Below are positions 1 to 32,991 of a DNA stretch of 32,991 nucleotides, piece by piece. Each line of letters starts with the position of its first letter. The stretch's first letter is position 1. Source of the stretch: a bacterium (lineage in GTDB: Bacteria; Gemmatimonadota; Gemmatimonadetes; Gemmatimonadales; Gemmatimonadaceae); NCBI GenBank assembly GCA_021813725.1, contig JAKAJN010000020.1:1-32991 (forward strand). The letters run 5' to 3'. The notes below the pieces were generated by a model. It was given only the letters and a program-made list of their open reading frames with translations, made no database searches and was not told the DNA's origin. A program made the position numbers and the translations under genes.

Positions 1-50
1 CTCTGTTTTCTCTCTGTTTTCTCTCTGTTTTCTCTCTGTTTTCTCTCTGT
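1..50 (-). repeat. 11-nt polypurine tandem repeat (family A), clipped by window edge
   Basis: About 4.5 copies of an 11-nt unit, CTCTCTGTTTT on the plus strand and AGAGAGAAAAC on the minus strand. The array begins 2 nt after the stop codon of the minus-strand gene that ends at position 53, and it is purine-rich on that gene's sense strand. It is related to the arrays near 22.9 and 23.4 kb, which have GC in place of the second AC of the unit. The left end lies outside the window, so total length and any partner arm are unknown. Confidence 0.9.
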
Positions 51-8032: not shown

Positions 8033-8226
8033 TCTCTTTTCGGGCAACAACTGACGCTGCATCACCCGAAAAGAGCACACCCGTCGCGAGGCGGGGCCGC
8101 AGAGCCAGGAATCTCGATGCCGAGATCGTCCGGCCGCCGAAGGTGAGCGAGGCCCAAGCGGGTCGCGCGGAAACAACCGGAGGCAGAATGCGGGCAGTAG
8201 CAATCGGGCGCGGCGAGGAGAGCACC

Positions 8227-8538
8227 ATGTACCCGCTGAGTGAAGCTGATCGTGTCGTCCTGCAGGCGCCCGAGCGTCTCGTCTCGGAGCACCGGCTCGA
8301 CTTCCGTCGCGACGCGCTCGAACGGCTTTCCAAGGCCGCCGCGAGCGGTGCAAAGCGGCTGATGATCGACCTGCGCGAGACGCGCGAAGTGGATGCCAGT
8401 GGCCTCGGCGTGCTGGTGCTGCTGCAGAAGCGGGCCCGCGAGCAGTACCTGGCCACCTGCCTCACGCACACGCCACCCACGGTGCGGCATCTCTTGCACC
8501 TGACGCAGCTCGAGGGACTCTTCGAGTTCGAGGAGTGA
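8227..8538 (+). CDS. STAS-domain protein (anti-sigma-factor antagonist-like)
   Basis: A 103-residue single STAS domain. The hallmark loop 'LMIDLRETREVDASGLGVLVLLQKRA' carries the conserved Asp-Ala-Ser-Gly-Leu-Gly, in which the Ser is the residue phosphorylated in SpoIIAA/RsbV-type antagonists. The usual C-terminal strand-helix 'VRHLLHLTQLEGLFEFEE' follows. Two starts are plausible: ATG 8227 with GAGGAG upstream, and ATG 8188 with GGAGG upstream, which adds 13 residues; an in-frame ATG at 8143 has no such site. No anti-sigma kinase or phosphatase gene is adjacent, so its partners must be encoded elsewhere. Expression may depend on the sigma-54-like promoter at 8017. A strong terminator follows about 60 nt after the stop. 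Confidence 0.88.
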   Translation: MYPLSEADRVVLQAPERLVSEHRLDFRRDALERLSKAAASGAKRLMIDLRETREVDASGLGVLVLLQKRAREQYLATCLTHTPPTVRHLLHLTQLEGLFEFEE

Positions 8539-19489: not shown

Positions 19490-19666
19490 CGCCGGCGGCG
19501 CGGGCCAAATACCCGCGATGGGTCGGTCGCGTCACGTGACCACAAAGTGACACTCGCTCGCGTTGACCGCTGTTGATGCGAGCGCCATCTTTTACGGATG
19601 CTGAACCTGACCCCCACTGGGGTTCGGGCGCATGTTCACCCCCATTCCCAAGGACCCCTTCAGCTT

Positions 19667-22600
19667 ATGAATCTCACTCGTCTGAGGGCCTACTTCGGTG
19701 CAGCGGTCGCCCTGCTCGTTCTGGCTGCCAATGCATCATATGCCCAGGTCACAACCGGCGCCGTCGCCGGCCGCGTGACGGACGCGTCTGGCGCGCCGAT
19801 CGAAGGCGCCCAGGTGCAGGTGCGTCAGGCCTCCACTGGCGTGAGCCGCGGAGCCATGACCAACGCCGACGGCCGGTATCGCGTCCCCGGTCTCGAGGTT
19901 GGCGACGGCTACGCCGTCACGGTCCGCCGCATCGGGTACACGCCGGTCACGCGCGACAACGTCAACGTCTCCATCGGGCAGGTCGCCCGCGTCGACCTGC
20001 AGATCTCGCAGGCCGCCACGACCCTCGCCGCGGTGACGGTCAGCACGGAGATCGACCCGGTCATCGCACCGTCGAAGAACGGCACGGGGACGACGGTCTC
20101 CGACTCGGCGCTGCTGCGCTTGCCGTCGCTCGGCCGCAACTTCACGGACTTCGTGGCACTCACGCCGCAGATTTCCAACTCCGGCCCAGGCCTCTCGGGC
20201 GGCGGTGTCAACAACCGCTACAACAGCATCCAGATCGACGGCTCCACCGAGTCGGACATGTTCGGCCTCGGCTCCACCGGCCAGCCCGGCGGCCAGGCGC
20301 GTGGCAAGTCCATCGGCCTCGAGTCGGTGAAGCAGTATCAGGTGCTTCTCTCGCCGTACGACGTGCGCTACGGCAACTTCGCCGGCGCGCTGATCAACGC
20401 CGTGACGAAGAGCGGCACCAATGACTTCAAGGGTTCGGCGTACTGGTACTTCCGCGACCAGGAAATCACCCGCGCCCAGCCGTATCTCTCGGACTTCCGT
20501 CAGACGCAGACCGGATTCTCGCTGGGTGGCCCGATCCTCAAGGACCGCGTGCACTTCTTCGTGAACCCGGAGTTCCAGTCGCAGAAGGCGCCGGCATCGG
20601 GCCCCTATATCGGTCTTGCTGGGGCGACGAACGTGCCAACCAACGCCGACCTCGACCGGTTCAACTCCATCAGTTCGAGCTACGGCCTGCCGACGTCTGG
20701 CGGCGGTTCGCGCATGAACTCGAACCCGCTGACGAACATCTTCGTGCGCTTCGACGTGCAGGGGTTGCCCTTCAACTCGTCACTGGTGCTGCGCCACAAC
20801 TATGGCAAGGCGCAGGACGACGTCTTCAGCCGGTCCTTCACGGGCACGACGTTCCAGCTCCTGAACAACGCCTACGCGTTCCGCTCGGACAAGGGCGCCA
20901 CGGTGGCGCAGCTTCGCTCCGCGTTCGCGAACGGCTGGTACAACGAGATTTTCGCGGGGCTCACGCGCATTCGTGACCGCCGCCGGCCGGAAGTTGGCGG
21001 CGTGCCCCAGTGGCAGGCCCGCACCACGACAGGGATCACGCTGATCGATGGCGCCGAGCGTTTCAGCCATGGCAATGAGCTCGATCAGGACATCCTTGAG
21101 CTCACCGACAACCTCCAGATCCCGGTCGGCTCGCACCGCTTCACGGTCGGCGCGACCTACTCGACGTACAAGGTCCGCAACCTGTTCGCACAGTCGATCT
21201 TTGGCGTCTGGAACTTCAACTCGCTCGACGATTTCCAGATTGGCAAGACCAATCAGTACATCGTAGGCGTTCCGTTGCCGGCCGGTACCGACGGCGCGGT
21301 GCGGTTCAACGCGAGCCTGCTGGGTGCCTACGTGCAGGATGAGTTCAATGTGACGCCGCGCTTGGCCATCACGGCTGGCGTGCGCGCCGACCTTCCGGCC
21401 TTTGGCGACAAGCCGCCCACCAACCCGACGATCGTGACGCAGTTCGGCCGCAACACGGCCGACATCCCGAGCGGCAACATGACGCTGTCGCCGCGCGTCG
21501 GCTTCAACTGGGACGTGACGGGTGATCAGAAGAACCAGTTGCGCGGTGGCGTTGGCGTCTTCGCCGGCCGTCCAGCGTACGTCTGGCTCTCGAATTCCTT
21601 CCAGAACTCTGGCCTCTCGGGTGTCGCACTGCTTACGTGCAACACGACGGCCGCACCGACGCTCACGGCGGCCAACGCCGCCAACGCGCCGCAAGCCTGC
21701 GCGACGGGCGGCACGGCGTCGCTCTCGGCCACGGCCGAAGTGGATCTGCTCAGCAAGGATCTCAAGTTCCCGCAGAGCCTGCGTGCGAATGTCGGCTTTG
21801 ATCGCGAGATCGTCGACGGCATCGTCGCTACGTTCGAGGCAATGTACACCAAGGGCATCAACACCTTGTTCTACGAGAACATCGCGCTCGGCGCGCCGCT
21901 GGGCACCGATCCGCACGGCCGCCTGATGTACGGCACGGCGCCGCTGACCCCGAACCTCAAGTTCACGGGCCGCAACACGGTGCTTGACGTCACGAACCAG
22001 AACAAGGACTACAGCTACCAGTTGACCGCCGGCCTGCAGCGCCGCTGGCGCAACAACTGGGAAGGCTCGGTCTTCTACACCTTCTCGAAGGCGTACGATA
22101 TCCAGAGCCTCGGGTCGTCCACCGCCTTCTCGCAGTACCGCTTCGGCCGCTCGGCGGGCTACTATCCGCAGGAGTCGACCCGTCTCACCAAGTCGATGTT
22201 CGAGCAGCCGCACCGCGTCGTCGCGAACGGGTCATACTCGTTCCAGAAGACCGGTACCGACCTCTCGCTCATCTACATCGGCGAATCGGGCATGCCGTTC
22301 CACTACCTGATCGGCGGCTCGAGCGCCGGCGACGTGAACGGCGACGGCATCGGCAACGATCTGCTCTACATCCCGAAGAACGTCACCGATCCGAACGAGA
22401 TCATCTTCGTGCAGAGCGGGTCCAATACGCCGGAGATGCAGGCCGCTGCCTTCGAGAAGTTCATCTCGAGCAACAAGTGCCTGGCCAAGCAGCGCGGCAC
22501 GATCATGGAGCGCCACAGCTGCGAGGAACCGTTCCGCAGCTTCGTCAACCTCACGGTCCGCCAGAGTCTCGGGAAGATGGGGCTGTCCAACGGGCTCCAC

Positions 22601-22873
22601 GCACCGGCGCTCAACAACGTGACGGTGAGCCTCGACATCTTCAACCTGGCGAACTTCCTCAACAAGAACTGGGGCCAGGTGCCGTCGGCGGGTGCCAACT
22701 CGGCCATCCTCGGGCCGCTGAACTACTCCACAAAGGAAACCGGTTCGATGGTCGGCGCGGCCGGCGTCGCGGCGCGTCCGAAGTTCACGTTCAGCCCGAC
22801 GTACTCGATGTTCAACCGGCAGAGCATCACGTCGAACTACCGGATGCAGCTGTCGGTGCGGTACGCGTTCTAG
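19667..22873 (+). CDS. TonB-dependent receptor, Oar-like, with N-terminal carboxypeptidase-regulatory domain
   Basis: A 1068-residue outer-membrane receptor. Signal peptide 'LRAYFGAAVALLVLAANASYAQ'; then a CarboxypepD_reg-like Ig fold at about 28-110 ('GAVAGRVTDASGAPIEGAQV...NADGRYRVPGLEVGDGYAVTVRRIGYTP'); then the plug ('NRYNSIQIDGS', 'VKQYQVLLSPYDVRYGNFAGALINAVTKSGTN' region) and a long barrel ending in Phe ('MQLSVRYAF'), the usual last residue of barrel proteins. The layout matches Oar-type receptors of Gemmatimonadota and myxobacteria; the substrate is unknown. ATG 19667 is preferred over 19598 because it begins the signal peptide. A weak TTGACC at 19563 could be a -35 element. A polypurine repeat follows the stop codon directly. 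Confidence 0.95.
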   Translation: MNLTRLRAYFGAAVALLVLAANASYAQVTTGAVAGRVTDASGAPIEGAQVQVRQASTGVSRGAMTNADGRYRVPGLEVGDGYAVTVRRIGYTPVTRDNVNVSIGQVARVDLQISQAATTLAAVTVSTEIDPVIAPSKNGTGTTVSDSALLRLPSLGRNFTDFVALTPQISNSGPGLSGGGVNNRYNSIQIDGSTESDMFGLGSTGQPGGQARGKSIGLESVKQYQVLLSPYDVRYGNFAGALINAVTKSGTNDFKGSAYWYFRDQEITRAQPYLSDFRQTQTGFSLGGPILKDRVHFFVNPEFQSQKAPASGPYIGLAGATNVPTNADLDRFNSISSSYGLPTSGGGSRMNSNPLTNIFVRFDVQGLPFNSSLVLRHNYGKAQDDVFSRSFTGTTFQLLNNAYAFRSDKGATVAQLRSAFANGWYNEIFAGLTRIRDRRRPEVGGVPQWQARTTTGITLIDGAERFSHGNELDQDILELTDNLQIPVGSHRFTVGATYSTYKVRNLFAQSIFGVWNFNSLDDFQIGKTNQYIVGVPLPAGTDGAVRFNASLLGAYVQDEFNVTPRLAITAGVRADLPAFGDKPPTNPTIVTQFGRNTADIPSGNMTLSPRVGFNWDVTGDQKNQLRGGVGVFAGRPAYVWLSNSFQNSGLSGVALLTCNTTAAPTLTAANAANAPQACATGGTASLSATAEVDLLSKDLKFPQSLRANVGFDREIVDGIVATFEAMYTKGINTLFYENIALGAPLGTDPHGRLMYGTAPLTPNLKFTGRNTVLDVTNQNKDYSYQLTAGLQRRWRNNWEGSVFYTFSKAYDIQSLGSSTAFSQYRFGRSAGYYPQESTRLTKSMFEQPHRVVANGSYSFQKTGTDLSLIYIGESGMPFHYLIGGSSAGDVNGDGIGNDLLYIPKNVTDPNEIIFVQSGSNTPEMQAAAFEKFISSNKCLAKQRGTIMERHSCEEPFRSFVNLTVRQSLGKMGLSNGLHAPALNNVTVSLDIFNLANFLNKNWGQVPSAGANSAILGPLNYSTKETGSMVGAAGVAARPKFTFSPTYSMFNRQSITSNYRMQLSVRYAF

Positions 22874-22875
22874 CT

Positions 22876-22919
22876 GCAGAAAAGAAGCAGAGAGAAAGCA
22901 GAGAAGAAGCAGAGATGAA
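22876..22919 (+). repeat. Family A polypurine repeat, left arm
   Basis: Degenerate 10-11-nt units (GCAGAGAGAAA, GCAGAGAAGAA, GCAGAGATGAA) begin 2 nt after the TonB receptor stop and are purine-rich in its sense strand. Positions 22885-22915 are complementary to 23421-23451 at 30 of 31 bases. The last unit runs straight into the hairpin at 22920. Confidence 0.9.
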
Positions 22920-22957
22920 GCAGAACTCCGGGGGCCGAGAGGCTCCCGGAGTTCTGC
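22920..22957. terminator. 17-bp hairpin with GAGA tetraloop, probable bidirectional terminator
   Basis: The left arm 22920-22936 pairs with 22941-22957 over 17 bp: 16 Watson-Crick pairs and one G-T (22933/22944). The loop is GAGA, a GNRA tetraloop when transcribed from the plus strand. It lies between convergent stops (22873 plus, 22962 minus) and 4 nt beyond the four-helix-bundle stop. Flanking T-runs are poor on both sides. Confidence 0.8.
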
Positions 22958-22961
22958 GTTT

Positions 22962-23339
22962 CTACCGTGCTGCCGGCAGCCGGGGCAGACGCATGACCCG
23001 GGCGCGCAGTCCCACCAGCATCAGCCGAATTTCCCGCGCTTCCGTCGCCGCGGCATTCGCTATCTCGACCGGAAGAAGCCCGCTGTCTGCGGCGATGAGC
23101 AGCAGCGTGTGCAGTTCGGCGGCCGATCCGATTGAAATGGACAGGAAGCGGGCAAAGTCGCGGCTCGAGCTTCGCATCGCGCCCTCGGCAATGTTGGCCG
23201 GCACGCTCGCCGCGGCGCGGACGATTTGAGGCCACGCAGTCACGGCAAAATGTCCCCGTGCGCCGGAGGCCGTCCGGTGAAGCGACGCGGCAAGCGCACG
23301 TGATCGCTTCCACACGGCGAGCTGCTCGTGCTGGTGCAT
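22962..23339 (-). CDS. Four-helix-bundle protein of the S23 / rRNA-intervening-sequence family
   Basis: A 125-residue all-helical protein. The family pattern is complete: 'QLAVWKRSRALAASLHRTA' in helix 1, 'QIVRAAASVPANIAEGAMRSSSRDFARFLSISIGSAAELHTLLLIAADSGLL' across helices 2 and 3 with the diagnostic Asn49-Ile-Ala-Glu-Gly53 and Gly71-Ser72, and a last helix 'EAREIRLMLVGLRARVM'. Members occur inside 23S rRNA intervening sequences, as Avd in diversity-generating retroelements and as free genes of unknown role; a basic surface suggests nucleic-acid binding. No reverse transcriptase or rRNA is nearby. The gene sits between inverted polypurine arms (22.9 and 23.4 kb) and close to a strong hairpin. 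The start is ATG 23339. Confidence 0.9.
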   Translation of the reverse strand: MHQHEQLAVWKRSRALAASLHRTASGARGHFAVTAWPQIVRAAASVPANIAEGAMRSSSRDFARFLSISIGSAAELHTLLLIAADSGLLPVEIANAAATEAREIRLMLVGLRARVMRLPRLPAAR

Positions 23340-23415
23340 GAGCGAAGGATAGGATTCGCCTCCGCACTGCCACCATCATTCCACCGCGCAGCACATCAAA
23401 GAAGCGCCGTCCCTC

Positions 23416-23505
23416 CCGCTTCTCTGCTTTTTCTCTGCTTTCTCTCTGCTTTCTCTCTGCTTTTTCTCTGCTTTCTCTCTGCTTTCTCTCTGCTTTCTCT
23501 CTGTG
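23416..23505 (-). repeat. Family A polypurine repeat, right arm
   Basis: About eight units, GCAGAGAGAAA or GCAGAGAAAAA on the minus strand, beginning 1-2 nt after the stop codon of the lptF/lptG-type gene that ends at 23507. The units alternate in two versions, so the array is not a recent perfect expansion. It is inverted relative to the arm at 22876. Confidence 0.92.
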
Positions 23506-23506
23506 C

Positions 23507-24592
23507 CTACGTCCTCACTCTCGCCAGCAACCCTATCCCCACCGCGCCGAACACGATGCCCGGCAGCCACGCCGCGAGATTCGGCGGCACGAGCCCCTTG
23601 GACCCGATGGCCTGCGTGAGCTGCACGAGCATCAGGAAGATGACCGTCGTGCCGAGACTGATGCCGACACCGAATGCCGTGCCGCCGCGCTGCGTGCTCG
23701 TCGCGAGCGGCGCGCCAAACAGCATGATGATCACGCACGTGACCGGAATGGCGATCTTGAGCATCCGGCCCACTTTCAGCGCGCCGACGTCGCTTCCCGA
23801 CCGCTCGAGCGCGCTGATGAACGTGCCGAGTTCCTCGTACGTCATCTCGTCCGGCACCTTGGAGCTCGCCATCAGTGCCCGCGGCTCCTCTGTCATGCGT
23901 CGGTCGCGCAGCGAGTCAAACGCGATGCTGATGTCGAGCGAATCGGTGGGGAGGATGTGCATCACGCCGCTCGACAGCGTCCACTGCTTGCGTCGCGCGT
24001 CGTACTTGCCCGATCGCGCGGTCACAAAGTACGTCGGGTACGCGGCGTCCTTGCCCTTGCGCTCCACCACCACCTGGTCGAGCGCACGCTGGTCCACATC
24101 GGCCCCGGCGACAGTGTACACCCGCCCGCCCTCGGCGGCGTACGTGAAATTGAAGCGGCTCGACCGGTTGCTGAACTGCCGCTCCTTCAGCAGTTCAACG
24201 CGCCGCGCGTTGGTGTAGGGCGATACGGCGCCGATCGTCAGTCCCGCACCGGTGGCGAGCAGTGCGCCGAACGCCATCGGCAGGATGAACCGATAGAAGC
24301 TGATGCCGCTCGCCTTGGCCGCCGTGATCTCGGAATGGCGGGTGAACGCACCAACCGAAAAGACGGTCGCAAACAGCACCGCCGCCGGCATCACCAGGAA
24401 CATCGTGTCCGGCACGCCGTACAGGTATGCGAGCGCGATGTCGCGCGGCGAGAGGTCGCGATTGAGGTATTTGTCCAGCTTCTCCGTCAGGTCGATGATG
24501 ATGACCAGCAGCGGAAAGCCGAGCGCGGTTCCCGAGAAGATCTTCACCCACTCGGCGAGCACATACCGGTCAAGCGGCTTGAGCAGGCGCAT
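23507..24592 (-). CDS. LptF/LptG-family LPS-export permease (second of pair)
   Basis: A 361-residue inner-membrane subunit of the type that, with LptB and a second permease, lifts lipopolysaccharide out of the inner membrane. Three N-terminal helices include the 'ALAYLYGVPDTMFLVMPAAVLFATVFSVGAFTRHSEITAAKASGIS' region with the coupling-helix motif 'SEITAAKASG'. A periplasmic beta domain follows (about 125-270), then three more helices ('IPVTCVIIMLFGAPLAT', 'GISLGTTVIFLMLVQL', 'WLPGIVFGAVGIGLLA'). The length is normal. ATG 24592 shares one base with the upstream stop (TGATG), so the pair is translationally coupled. Which of the two is LptF or LptG cannot be decided from sequence alone. Confidence 0.92.
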   Translation of the reverse strand: MRLLKPLDRYVLAEWVKIFSGTALGFPLLVIIIDLTEKLDKYLNRDLSPRDIALAYLYGVPDTMFLVMPAAVLFATVFSVGAFTRHSEITAAKASGISFYRFILPMAFGALLATGAGLTIGAVSPYTNARRVELLKERQFSNRSSRFNFTYAAEGGRVYTVAGADVDQRALDQVVVERKGKDAAYPTYFVTARSGKYDARRKQWTLSSGVMHILPTDSLDISIAFDSLRDRRMTEEPRALMASSKVPDEMTYEELGTFISALERSGSDVGALKVGRMLKIAIPVTCVIIMLFGAPLATSTQRGGTAFGVGISLGTTVIFLMLVQLTQAIGSKGLVPPNLAAWLPGIVFGAVGIGLLARVRT

Positions 24593-26178
24593 CACCGCCG
24601 CCTCCGGACCAGGCGCACGACGCGCCGGCGCGCGCGATCGAGCCACTCCGTGGTCTCACTGCCGCGGTTGGTCGTCCCCTCATGGCCGAGCCGCGCCGTG
24701 AGCACGAGGCCGATGCTGCCAAGGATGATGTTGGCCGCCCACATCGCCCAGAACGGCGTCATGTAGTCGCGGTCCGCCATCGTCTCACCGATGATGAGAC
24801 CCACGTAGTACACGCCGAAGACGGCCAGCGAGACGCCGATGGTCATCCCGACGCCGCCGCGCGGAAAGCGCAGCGCGATTGGTGCGCCGAGCAGGACAAA
24901 GACGAAACAGGCCACGGCGATCGCGAACTTCTTCTCGATTTCCACCGAGTGGCCGTCCACGATGTTCGCGGCATTGCCGAACTCGATCTTGAGTCCCTCG
25001 ACGATCACGGTCGTCGTGGAGGGGAGCAGGGTATCCGCGGCGGGCACGACTTGGCCAAACGTGGGCGGTACGCCGGCGGCGTGCAGCGCCGAGTCCGGAC
25101 GAGGTGGGACCGTGTCCGAGGGCGTGGTCGTCACCACGGGAGCCGGCGCCTTGAGCGTGTCCGGCCGCTGCCTGAGCGTGTCGGGCCGCGGTTTCGCCGT
25201 GTCCTGTGGCACGGTGGCCGCGGCGGCGGTCCGGATGCCGACGGCGGACAGCAGGCGACAGTACGCGGTGCCGATGCCGGGGCGGAGCACCTGCGGCTGC
25301 AGGGGCGCCGCCGTCTTGCGGTCGTACTTGTAGAGCAGCTTCCACGTGCTGTCGCGCGTCTTGGCGGCCCGCTCGACGCGCGACTCCAGTTCGCAGATCG
25401 TCATCTCGCGGTCGCTCTTGTAGGCGCTGTCCGGCGACTCGCTCTCGAACTGGTTGCCGACGCCGCGCACCTTGATGAAGTCGGTGGTGAAGAAGTTGCG
25501 CTGCAGCTTCGCCGGCTCCTGCAGCGAGACTTCGGTCATCGAGCCGCTGTACAGCGTCAGCAGCAGGTCCGACTGGTCGGCTGACAACTCCAGCAGTCCG
25601 CTGTCGGCGTGGATGGTGCGGCGCTTCTGCGGTGGCGACAGGTCGTAGATGGTGACGTCGCGCATCCGGCTCGTCGCCCGATCAATGTGCACCGCGCGCA
25701 GGTAGAGCCGGCTTGGCGACACTTCATTGATGATCTGTTCCTTGAAGGCGACGGTGGGCTTCTTGCGCGAGATGTCGCTCGTGAGCGTGGCCAGGCGATG
25801 GTTGGCGCGCGGCAGCACCTGGTCGTTGAACCAGACCATGAACCCGGTGAAGAAGAGCGCGGCTACGAGCACCGGCGCGACGAGGCGGTGCATGGACACG
25901 CCGCTCGCCTTGTAGGCGGTGATCTCGTTTTCCGACGCCAGCCGGCTGAATGCGTGCAGGGTGGCGACGAGAATCGCCATCGGCAGGGTCATTGCAACGG
26001 TGAAGGGAATCGAGAGCGCGAAGAACTCGACGATTGCCCGCACCGGCAGCCCCTTGCCCACCAGGTCGCCGAACTTCTTGGCGATGTAGTTGAGCAGGAG
26101 CAGCGACGTGAGCGCCGAAAGCGCAAACACGAGCGGCCCGACATGCTCCCTCAGGATGTACTTGGAAGTGATCTTCAC
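24592..26178 (-). CDS. LptF/LptG-family LPS-export permease with enlarged periplasmic region
   Basis: A 528-residue member, clearly longer than the usual ~360. Helices lie at about 15-35, 55-76 and 100-117, with coupling motif 'SENEITAYKASGVS' (83-95); the C-terminal helices are at about 417-437, 443-465 and 475-497. The periplasmic part runs from 118 to 415. Residues about 318-388 form a Pro/Thr/Ala-rich, apparently unfolded linker with repeated 'RPDTL' words. The jellyroll-like strands resume at 'TTTVIVEGLKIEFGNAANIVDGHSVEIEKKFAIAVACF'. The C-terminus adds a basic cytoplasmic tail. It is first in a two-gene operon and divergent from sprA. Confidence 0.92.
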   Translation of the reverse strand: MKITSKYILREHVGPLVFALSALTSLLLLNYIAKKFGDLVGKGLPVRAIVEFFALSIPFTVAMTLPMAILVATLHAFSRLASENEITAYKASGVSMHRLVAPVLVAALFFTGFMVWFNDQVLPRANHRLATLTSDISRKKPTVAFKEQIINEVSPSRLYLRAVHIDRATSRMRDVTIYDLSPPQKRRTIHADSGLLELSADQSDLLLTLYSGSMTEVSLQEPAKLQRNFFTTDFIKVRGVGNQFESESPDSAYKSDREMTICELESRVERAAKTRDSTWKLLYKYDRKTAAPLQPQVLRPGIGTAYCRLLSAVGIRTAAAATVPQDTAKPRPDTLRQRPDTLKAPAPVVTTTPSDTVPPRPDSALHAAGVPPTFGQVVPAADTLLPSTTTVIVEGLKIEFGNAANIVDGHSVEIEKKFAIAVACFVFVLLGAPIALRFPRGGVGMTIGVSLAVFGVYYVGLIIGETMADRDYMTPFWAMWAANIILGSIGLVLTARLGHEGTTNRGSETTEWLDRARRRVVRLVRRRR

Positions 26179-26257: not shown

Positions 26258-26324
26258 CCACCAGCCGACCGCTCAGATGCAAGGGTGAAGGGACACAGTG
26301 GGCCAAAGGATGCAAACGGCAACC

Positions 26325-26359
26325 GACTACCGCCTGCCGTCTACCGTCCACCGTCCGCC
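26325..26359 (-). repeat. Family D heptamer repeat (inverted copy) at the sprA 5' end
   Basis: On the minus strand it reads as four to five 7-nt units of the type GGACGGT, GGACGGT, AGACGGC, AGGCGGT. It is the inverse of the array at 32666. It lies 27 nt before the favoured sprA start and in an open frame with it, so it could be translated if an upstream start is used. Confidence 0.8.
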
Positions 26360-32665: not shown

Positions 32666-32991
32666 GAGACGGTGGACAGTGGACGGTGGACGGTGGACAG
32701 TGGAGCGTGCAGCGCATTCCCCGCAGTGCGCGCGTGGCGCTGGTCGTTCTGGCCGCGGTCGCCGCCGCGTGCTCCTCGAAGCCTGACGCCGCGCCCGCGC
32801 CGCCGGTGGTCACGACGGAGTTCGATGGCGAGGCCGCGCTCAAGTATGCCGCCGCACAGGTGGCATTCGGTCCTCGCGTGCCGGGGAGCGAGGCGCATCG
32901 CAAGGGGGGCGACTGGATTGTCGCGGAGATGAAAGCGCGTGGCGCGACGGTCGTGCAGCAGACCTGGACGCACCGAACCAAGACCGGTCGC
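32662..32991 (+). CDS. M28-type peptidase / glutaminyl-cyclase-like lipoprotein, 3' truncated by window
   Basis: The frame is open to the window end (110 codons seen). A lipoprotein signal 'RVALVVLAAVAAAC-SS' is followed by 'AALKYAAAQVAFGPRVPGSEAHRKGGDWIVAEMKARGATVVQQTWTH'. This is the characteristic N-terminal block of M28 peptidases and bacterial glutaminyl-peptide cyclotransferases; the metal-binding part lies outside the window. ATG 32662 overlaps the sprA stop (ATGA), but its first ~15 codons are repeat DNA. GTG 32707 just after the repeat would give a more normal signal peptide. Glutaminyl cyclases act on exported proteins in T9SS organisms, so the link with sprA is suggestive, but peptidase versus cyclase cannot be decided. 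Confidence 0.82.
   Translation, partial: MRDGGQWTVDGGQWSVQRIPRSARVALVVLAAVAAACSSKPDAAPAPPVVTTEFDGEAALKYAAAQVAFGPRVPGSEAHRKGGDWIVAEMKARGATVVQQTWTHRTKTGR
32666..32703 (+). repeat. Family D heptamer repeat after the sprA stop codon
   Basis: Five consecutive 7-nt units of GACGGTG or GACAGTG begin 2 nt after the sprA TGA stop. They lie inside the first codons of the downstream lipoprotein gene if its ATG 32662 is used, giving the residues DGGQWTVDGGQWSV. Confidence 0.92.

What the first reader, a model, noticed from the sequence alone, without database searches (positions are those of the whole stretch)
22876..23505. Four-helix-bundle (S23/IVS-type) gene framed by inverted polypurine repeats and a strong hairpin
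The arms at 22885-22915 and 23421-23451 are complementary at 30 of 31 bases and enclose 505 nt with the gene and a 17-bp hairpin. Known S23 proteins sit inside rRNA intervening sequences whose ends base-pair, and Avd of diversity-generating retroelements has the same fold. Here the same layout occurs between ordinary protein genes, with neither rRNA nor reverse transcriptase. It could be a free-standing intervening-sequence-like mobile unit, or the protein could bind the repeat RNA or DNA and help spread the gene-end repeats.
Basis: partly seen in the sequence, partly recalled or inferred. Interest (0 to 1): 0.78.

Follow-up and report, generated by a model that had tools for sequence, protein, structure and literature searches.

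The report
Four-helix gene partnered with scattered repeats
A small gene of unknown function (the S23/IVP four-helix-bundle family) sits between two mirror-image arrays of a short repeat, the same arrays are scattered between other genes of that genome, and relatives of the gene across many bacterial phyla sit inside similar arrays, which suggests that the protein and the puzzling short repeats of bacteria form one system.

Summary
In detail: an S23/IVP gene (22962-23339, minus) lies between inverted 11-nt arrays (22876-22924; 23421-23503) beside a 17-bp hairpin. Of 77 S23 loci in the window's order, 56 have inverted flanks above the 99th percentile of controls (2 of 320 ordinary genes do). 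Of 79 loci, nearly all from other phyla, 43 do (2 of 111 neighbouring genes), usually as 7-nt arrays. In the window's genus all 7 genomes with this S23 orthologue carry dispersed cognate 11-mers; the 4 without have none. Dispersed arrays match S23-flank units of their own genome (14/24 in one other genus; 1/24 match any other genome). Unit length follows the S23 tree. Reverse transcriptase and RAYT transposase were not found in this genome. The gene is syntenic and under purifying selection, with 3 empty sites, so frequent jumping is not shown. Best reading: a resident gene plus dispersed cognate arrays, working like RAYT/REPIN but with a non-transposase protein of the Avd fold. That S23 binds or spreads the arrays is inferred. 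Arrays also occur in some genomes without detected S23.

The parts
22962..23339 (-). S23/IVP four-helix-bundle gene, 125 aa
   Evidence: PF05635 E=1e-24, TIGR02436; model pLDDT 94, best PDB match 2gsc; dN/dS about 0.09 to the nearest orthologue
22876..22924 (+). Left tandem array, 4.5 x 11 nt (GCAGAGARRAA), purine strand reading inward; starts 2 nt after the stop of the outer-membrane gene
23421..23503 (-). Right tandem array, 7.5 x 11 nt, inverted with respect to the left one; starts 3 nt after the stop of lptG
22920..22957 (.). 17-bp hairpin between the left array and the S23 stop; likely shared terminator, kept in all 7 orthologous loci
   Evidence: terminator role is inferred
1..50 (-). 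Dispersed 11-mer array without an S23 gene, 2 nt after the stop of the gene at 53-517; contig end
32668..32704 (+). 7-mer array GACGGTG x 5.3, 2 nt after the stop of the SprA-like gene; a different unit family
23507..24646 (-). Neighbour: lptG-type gene, conserved border of the locus
   Evidence: PF03739; synteny in the genus
19598..22873 (+). Neighbour: TonB-dependent-receptor-like outer-membrane gene, conserved border of the locus
   Evidence: synteny

Best explanation
The S23/IVP gene and its inverted tandem arrays form one gene-plus-repeat system. A resident, vertically inherited S23 gene sits between two inverted arrays of a short unit (7 nt in most bacteria sampled, 10-11 nt in this genus's clade), and arrays or array pairs without the gene are scattered at gene ends of the same genome. 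Shown: the flanking, the dispersal, the match of unit between gene locus and many dispersed copies, the fit of unit length to the S23 tree, selection on the protein, and no RT or RAYT found in this genome. Inferred: the S23 protein (a four-helix bundle of the Avd fold) recognises its cognate array as DNA or RNA, and this recognition helps the arrays spread or be overwritten by the resident unit; the species-specific change of unit at the gene locus and at dispersed sites together would be the trace of that. The system would thus work like RAYT/REPIN, with host recombination or replication doing the copying.
For: 56/77 S23 loci of the order and 43/79 others have inverted flanks against 2/320 and 2/111 ordinary genes. 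7/7 against 0/4 congeners for cognate dispersed 11-mers. Own-genome match of dispersed arrays 14/24 in G016 (1/24 for all other genomes) and 12/24 in G001. Unit length on the S23 tree: 5 changes against 12.5 in shuffles. Unit differs between species at two syntenic S23 loci and at another orthologous site. dN/dS 0.09-0.2. RVT_1 and Y1_Tnp not found in G000.
Against: S23-less genomes can also hold arrays, and array density does not separate the two groups. G028 dispersed arrays do not match its S23 flanks (0/9). G002 has 13 hits of a 10-mer with no known S23 partner. Some S23 genes lack clear arrays. The genus test is 11 related genomes, so 7/7 against 0/4 is not 11 independent events. No binding, mobility or expression data.
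Confidence: 0.5

Rival explanations
1. Host regulon: S23 is an RNA- or DNA-binding protein and the arrays are its functional sites at gene ends (mRNA 3' ends, termination, antisense control). Its own gene is flanked for autoregulation, and the arrays are kept by selection rather than by spreading.
For: In G000 about 23 of 38 arrays lie within 15 nt of a stop codon with a constant strand sense (count); the arms of one pair are matched and can form long RNA stems; congeners without the S23 orthologue have none of these arrays; Avd of DGRs, with the same fold, works in an RNA-protein complex (established knowledge; DGR ribonucleoprotein structures appear).
Against: The unit changes between close species at gene and dispersed sites together, which is unusual for binding sites of a conserved regulator; at one orthologous site different genomes carry unrelated repeats or none.
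Confidence: 0.25
2. Passenger: arrays arise and spread by slippage and host recombination on their own, and S23 genes, moved by other means, settle or survive preferentially inside array pairs, which are safe intergenic sites.
For: Arrays exist without S23; many arrays in G001 and G028 do not match an own S23 flank.
Against: Does not predict the own-genome match, the fit of unit length to the S23 tree, or inverted arrays around S23 in most phyla sampled.
Confidence: 0.15
3. Classical mobile unit: the whole array-S23-array block jumps as one element, a free-standing relative of rRNA intervening sequences.
For: Three empty sites in congeners; S23 genes between cas6 and cas4, and between cas10 and a cmr3-family gene, on cyanobacterial plasmids; rRNA IVS have an S23 ORF between inverted ends (PMC4990558).
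Against: Two S23 lineages are syntenic in most of the genus; no identical multi-copy units were seen; no target-site duplication was resolved; the empty sites may be losses.
Confidence: 0.08

Closest known systems
RAYT/REPIN (REP-associated tyrosine transposase and REP doublets; PMC3116915, PMC2817692)
   Same: Resident gene, each type in one copy, beside inverted repeats whose relatives are dispersed between genes as inverted pairs
   Different: No Y1 transposase: the protein is S23, and Y1_Tnp was not found in this genome. The repeats are tandem 7-11-mers, not REP palindromes
rRNA intervening sequences with an S23 ORF (e.g. Coxiella burnetii; PMC4990558)
   Same: S23 ORF enclosed by complementary ends that can form a stem
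   Different: Not in an rRNA gene; ends are tandem arrays; relatives of the ends are dispersed over the genome
Heptameric intergenic repeats (Xanthomonas and Nostoc, PMC4692102; Beggiatoaceae, PMC4679880; cyanobacterial STRR)
   Same: Short tandem arrays between genes, often near stop codons; in Xanthomonas often as inverted pairs. S23 genes of Xanthomonas (L234) and Nostoc lie in such arrays
   Different: Those papers name no partner gene; at the window locus the unit is 11 nt
Avd of diversity-generating retroelements
   Same: Same fold (4dwl, TM 0.72 by query length, 0.82 by target length)
   Different: No reverse transcriptase found in this genome; sequence identity only about 15%

Membership tests
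S23/IVP protein family (PF05635, TIGR02436) | Profile match above the curated cut-off and four-helix-bundle fold | tested here: met
   87.2 bits against 33.8, 88 against 24; fold match 2gsc
rRNA intervening sequence | Lies inside a 16S or 23S rRNA gene | tested here: not met
   No rRNA in the window; protein-coding neighbours
rRNA intervening sequence | S23 ORF between complementary ends | tested here: met
rRNA intervening sequence | Excised from the transcript by RNase III | not testable with these tools
   Needs RNA data
RAYT/REPIN | Y1 (HUH) transposase encoded by the linked gene | tested here: not met
   Gene is PF05635; PF01797 not found in G000
RAYT/REPIN | Linked gene flanked by repeats that are also dispersed in the genome | tested here: met
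RAYT/REPIN | Repeat is a short palindromic REP | tested here: not met
   Tandem 11-mers, palindromic only as array pairs
Diversity-generating retroelement | Reverse transcriptase present | tested here: not met
   RVT_1 not found in G000; found in 1 of 11 congeners
Diversity-generating retroelement | Template and variable repeats | not tested
   Not searched, since no RT was found
Heptameric intergenic repeats (STRR type) | Tandem 7-nt units between genes | tested here: not met
   Window locus has 11-nt units; S23 loci elsewhere mostly have 7-nt units
Transposable unit | Same unit at different sites in close relatives, with resolved target-site change | tested here: inconclusive
   3 empty sites but no recent insertion pair; intergenic sequence too diverged to read the junction

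The most novel reading that the evidence does not exclude
S23/IVP proteins are the dedicated partners of the short tandem repeats, mostly heptamers, scattered between bacterial genes. The protein drives the spread and species-specific renewal of its cognate array, making a bacteria-wide gene-plus-repeat replicator without a transposase or reverse transcriptase, of which S23-bearing rRNA intervening sequences are a special case.
Probability: 0.35. Interest if true: 0.95.

Novelty: new variant of a known kind. Interest (0 to 1): 0.85.

Why it matters
Heptameric intergenic repeats have been noted in several bacterial groups without an explanation of origin, and S23 proteins have had solved structures since 2006-2007 without a function. 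If the two belong together, both questions become testable at once: which array a given S23 binds, and whether removing it stops the arrays from spreading or changes the ends of the mRNAs that carry them. It would also give S23-bearing rRNA intervening sequences, whose origin is unclear, a family context.

Tried and rejected
(2) RAYT as spreader: PF01797 in 2 of 11 congeners, not found here. (3) Retroelement: RVT_1 in 1 of 11. (4) Overall array density as a function of S23 presence: no separation. (5) Old-type units left at the outer edges of arrays, as a sign of growth from inside: not supported, 7/54 against 5/64. (6) Phages: no S23 match. (7) A family-wide alignment was too diverse for the collection scan; a narrower one worked. 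(8) The reversed-pattern control hits are attributed to the mirror symmetry of CAACAGAGAGACAAC, not to background.

Full report
OBSERVATION. The window is a whole contig (C70) of a 3.0-Mb draft genome. One genome of its family (G015) can be named through a matching contig as Gemmatimonadaceae. The arms, the spacing, the hairpin and the gene are as reported. The gene is an S23/IVP member. Its AlphaFold model (pLDDT 94) matches 2gsc and 2rld, S23-family proteins of unknown function, and more distantly Avd 4dwl. The nearest orthologue is 85% identical with dN/dS of about 0.09, and other pairs give 0.15-0.2: purifying selection.

SAME SITE IN THE GENUS. Between lptG and the outer-membrane gene, 7 of 11 genomes hold the S23 orthologue. 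All 7 have inverted arrays on both sides and the same hairpin, but the unit differs: GCAGAGAGAAA in G000 and G004, CAACAGAGAGA in G001, G005, G006 and G008, and a 9/10-mer with ACGACAGA in G010. G003, G007 and G009 have neither gene nor arrays there, only a terminator-like hairpin within 76-86 nt. G002 has a different S23 gene nearby with 8-mer arrays.

DISPERSED ARRAYS. In G000 the 3-unit pattern occurs 120 times, at 30 or more places. CAACAGARARA arrays are found in G005 (184 hits), G010 (102), G008 (88), G001 (85), G004 (78) and G006 (32). Neither unit occurs in G002, G003, G007 or G009. G004 is mixed: 16 hits of the G000 unit against 78 of the other, while its S23 locus carries the G000 unit. 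A 10-mer is present mostly as ACGACAGAGT in G001 and as ACGACAGAGA in G010, as at an S23 locus of each; G002 has 13 hits without a known partner. The 7-mer GGGAGAC, which flanks another S23 gene of G000 (L002), has 37 hits in G000 and at most 8 in any congener. In G000 about 23 of 38 arrays lie within 15 nt of a stop codon with the purine strand as sense (my count). Inverted pairs are separated by a few to about 75 nt, and arms of one pair resemble each other more than arms of other pairs (0 of 5000 permutations). At another convergent site the unit again differs between species, and genomes without this S23 have other repeats or none.

S23 LOCI IN GENERAL. Over 77 S23 loci from the order, upstream and reverse-complemented downstream flanks align above the 99th percentile of cross-locus pairs in 56; in direct orientation only 4 do. 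Ordinary genes in 400 kb of G001: 2 of 320. Over 79 loci, nearly all from other phyla (Chloroflexi, Planctomycetota, Acidobacteria, Proteobacteria, Firmicutes, Bacteroidetes, Verrucomicrobia and others), 43 exceed the same threshold, against 2 of 111 other genes in the same loci. Arrays on both sides: 59 of 79 against 11 of 111. The period is 7 or 14 in 59 of 65 upstream arrays; the upstream array is G-rich and the downstream one C-rich on the gene's sense strand. Several cyanobacterial plasmid S23 genes show the same, two of them between cas6 and cas4. These loci were chosen by similarity to a few S23 proteins and are not an unbiased sample of the family.

COGNATE MATCH AND COEVOLUTION. In G016, a different genus, 14 of 24 dispersed arrays in contig starts chosen without regard to repeats match that genome's own S23 flanks, and 1 of 24 matches any other genome's. 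In G001 12 of 24 match its own, as do congeners. In G028 none of 9 do. On the S23 tree of the order, unit length changes 5 times against 12.5 in shuffles (minimum 8 in 500); the 10/11-mers fall in one clade with an 8-mer relative, and one 9-mer lies elsewhere. A second S23 lineage with 7-mers is syntenic in 9 congeners and its unit differs in most of them.

WHAT SPEAKS AGAINST. Array density overall does not separate genomes with and without detected S23: G011 7.2, G013 5.1, G021 0, G034 1.1 per 100 kb without; G016 12.7, G019 8.2, G001 6.0, G028 4.5, G014 0 with. S23 absence rests on a search with one protein, so divergent S23 genes could be missed. Some S23 genes have no clear arrays. The genus test is 11 related genomes. 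No binding, mobility or expression data exist.

MECHANISM. Neither RT nor RAYT was found in this genome (94% complete), so copying, if any, probably rests on host enzymes. The species-specific change of unit at the gene and at dispersed sites together is easier to explain by spreading or conversion from a resident copy than by static binding sites. I therefore favour a RAYT/REPIN-like relation in which S23 recognises its array; recognition and spreading are inferences.

LITERATURE. Coxiella IVS: S23 ORF between inverted ends, origin unclear (PMC4990558). Xanthomonas and Nostoc heptamers: dispersed, in Xanthomonas with about 70 inverted pairs, near stop codons, and generally not tied to mobile elements (PMC4692102). 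Beggiatoaceae heptamers (PMC4679880). No held paper that I found links S23 to such arrays; preprints and most subscription journals were not searchable.

Noticed in passing
window 32668-32704 and 26322-26355: 7-mer arrays (GACGGTG after the stop of the SprA-like gene; ACCGTCT between the lptF- and SprA-like genes). Congeners have 7-mer arrays of other units at the lptF/SprA gap.
   Followed up: partly
window 8064-8141 (+): c-di-GMP-I riboswitch aptamer (48.5 bits, gathering 35), upstream of a small gene at 8227-8538.
   Followed up: no
L260, L264, L267 (G004, G003, G007): A different inverted repeat family (CACGGATGAACACGGAT type) occupies the TauE/S41 site where congeners with this S23 have CAGAGA arrays; no S23 partner identified.
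   Followed up: no
L287 10745-10869 and 12698-12784; L294 1631-1720 (G011): Inverted 8-mer pairs (GGTAGGAC type) in a genome with no S23 gene detected: an array family without a known partner.
   Followed up: partly
L004, L100, L106, L108, L111: A long-branched S23 lineage in the genus whose loci lack clear inverted arrays, some of them beside a YchF-like start; possibly freed from its arrays.
   Followed up: no
L273, L274, L282: S23 genes between CRISPR genes (cas6/cas4 twice, cas10/cmr3-family once) on cyanobacterial plasmids. A CRISPR survey lists 23S rRNA IVP in a figure legend (PMC10910872), which such arrays might explain.
   Followed up: partly
window 1-50: The contig ends inside an 11-mer array, as do others of this draft genome (C21, C38), so the arrays probably break the assembly and are undercounted.
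   Followed up: no
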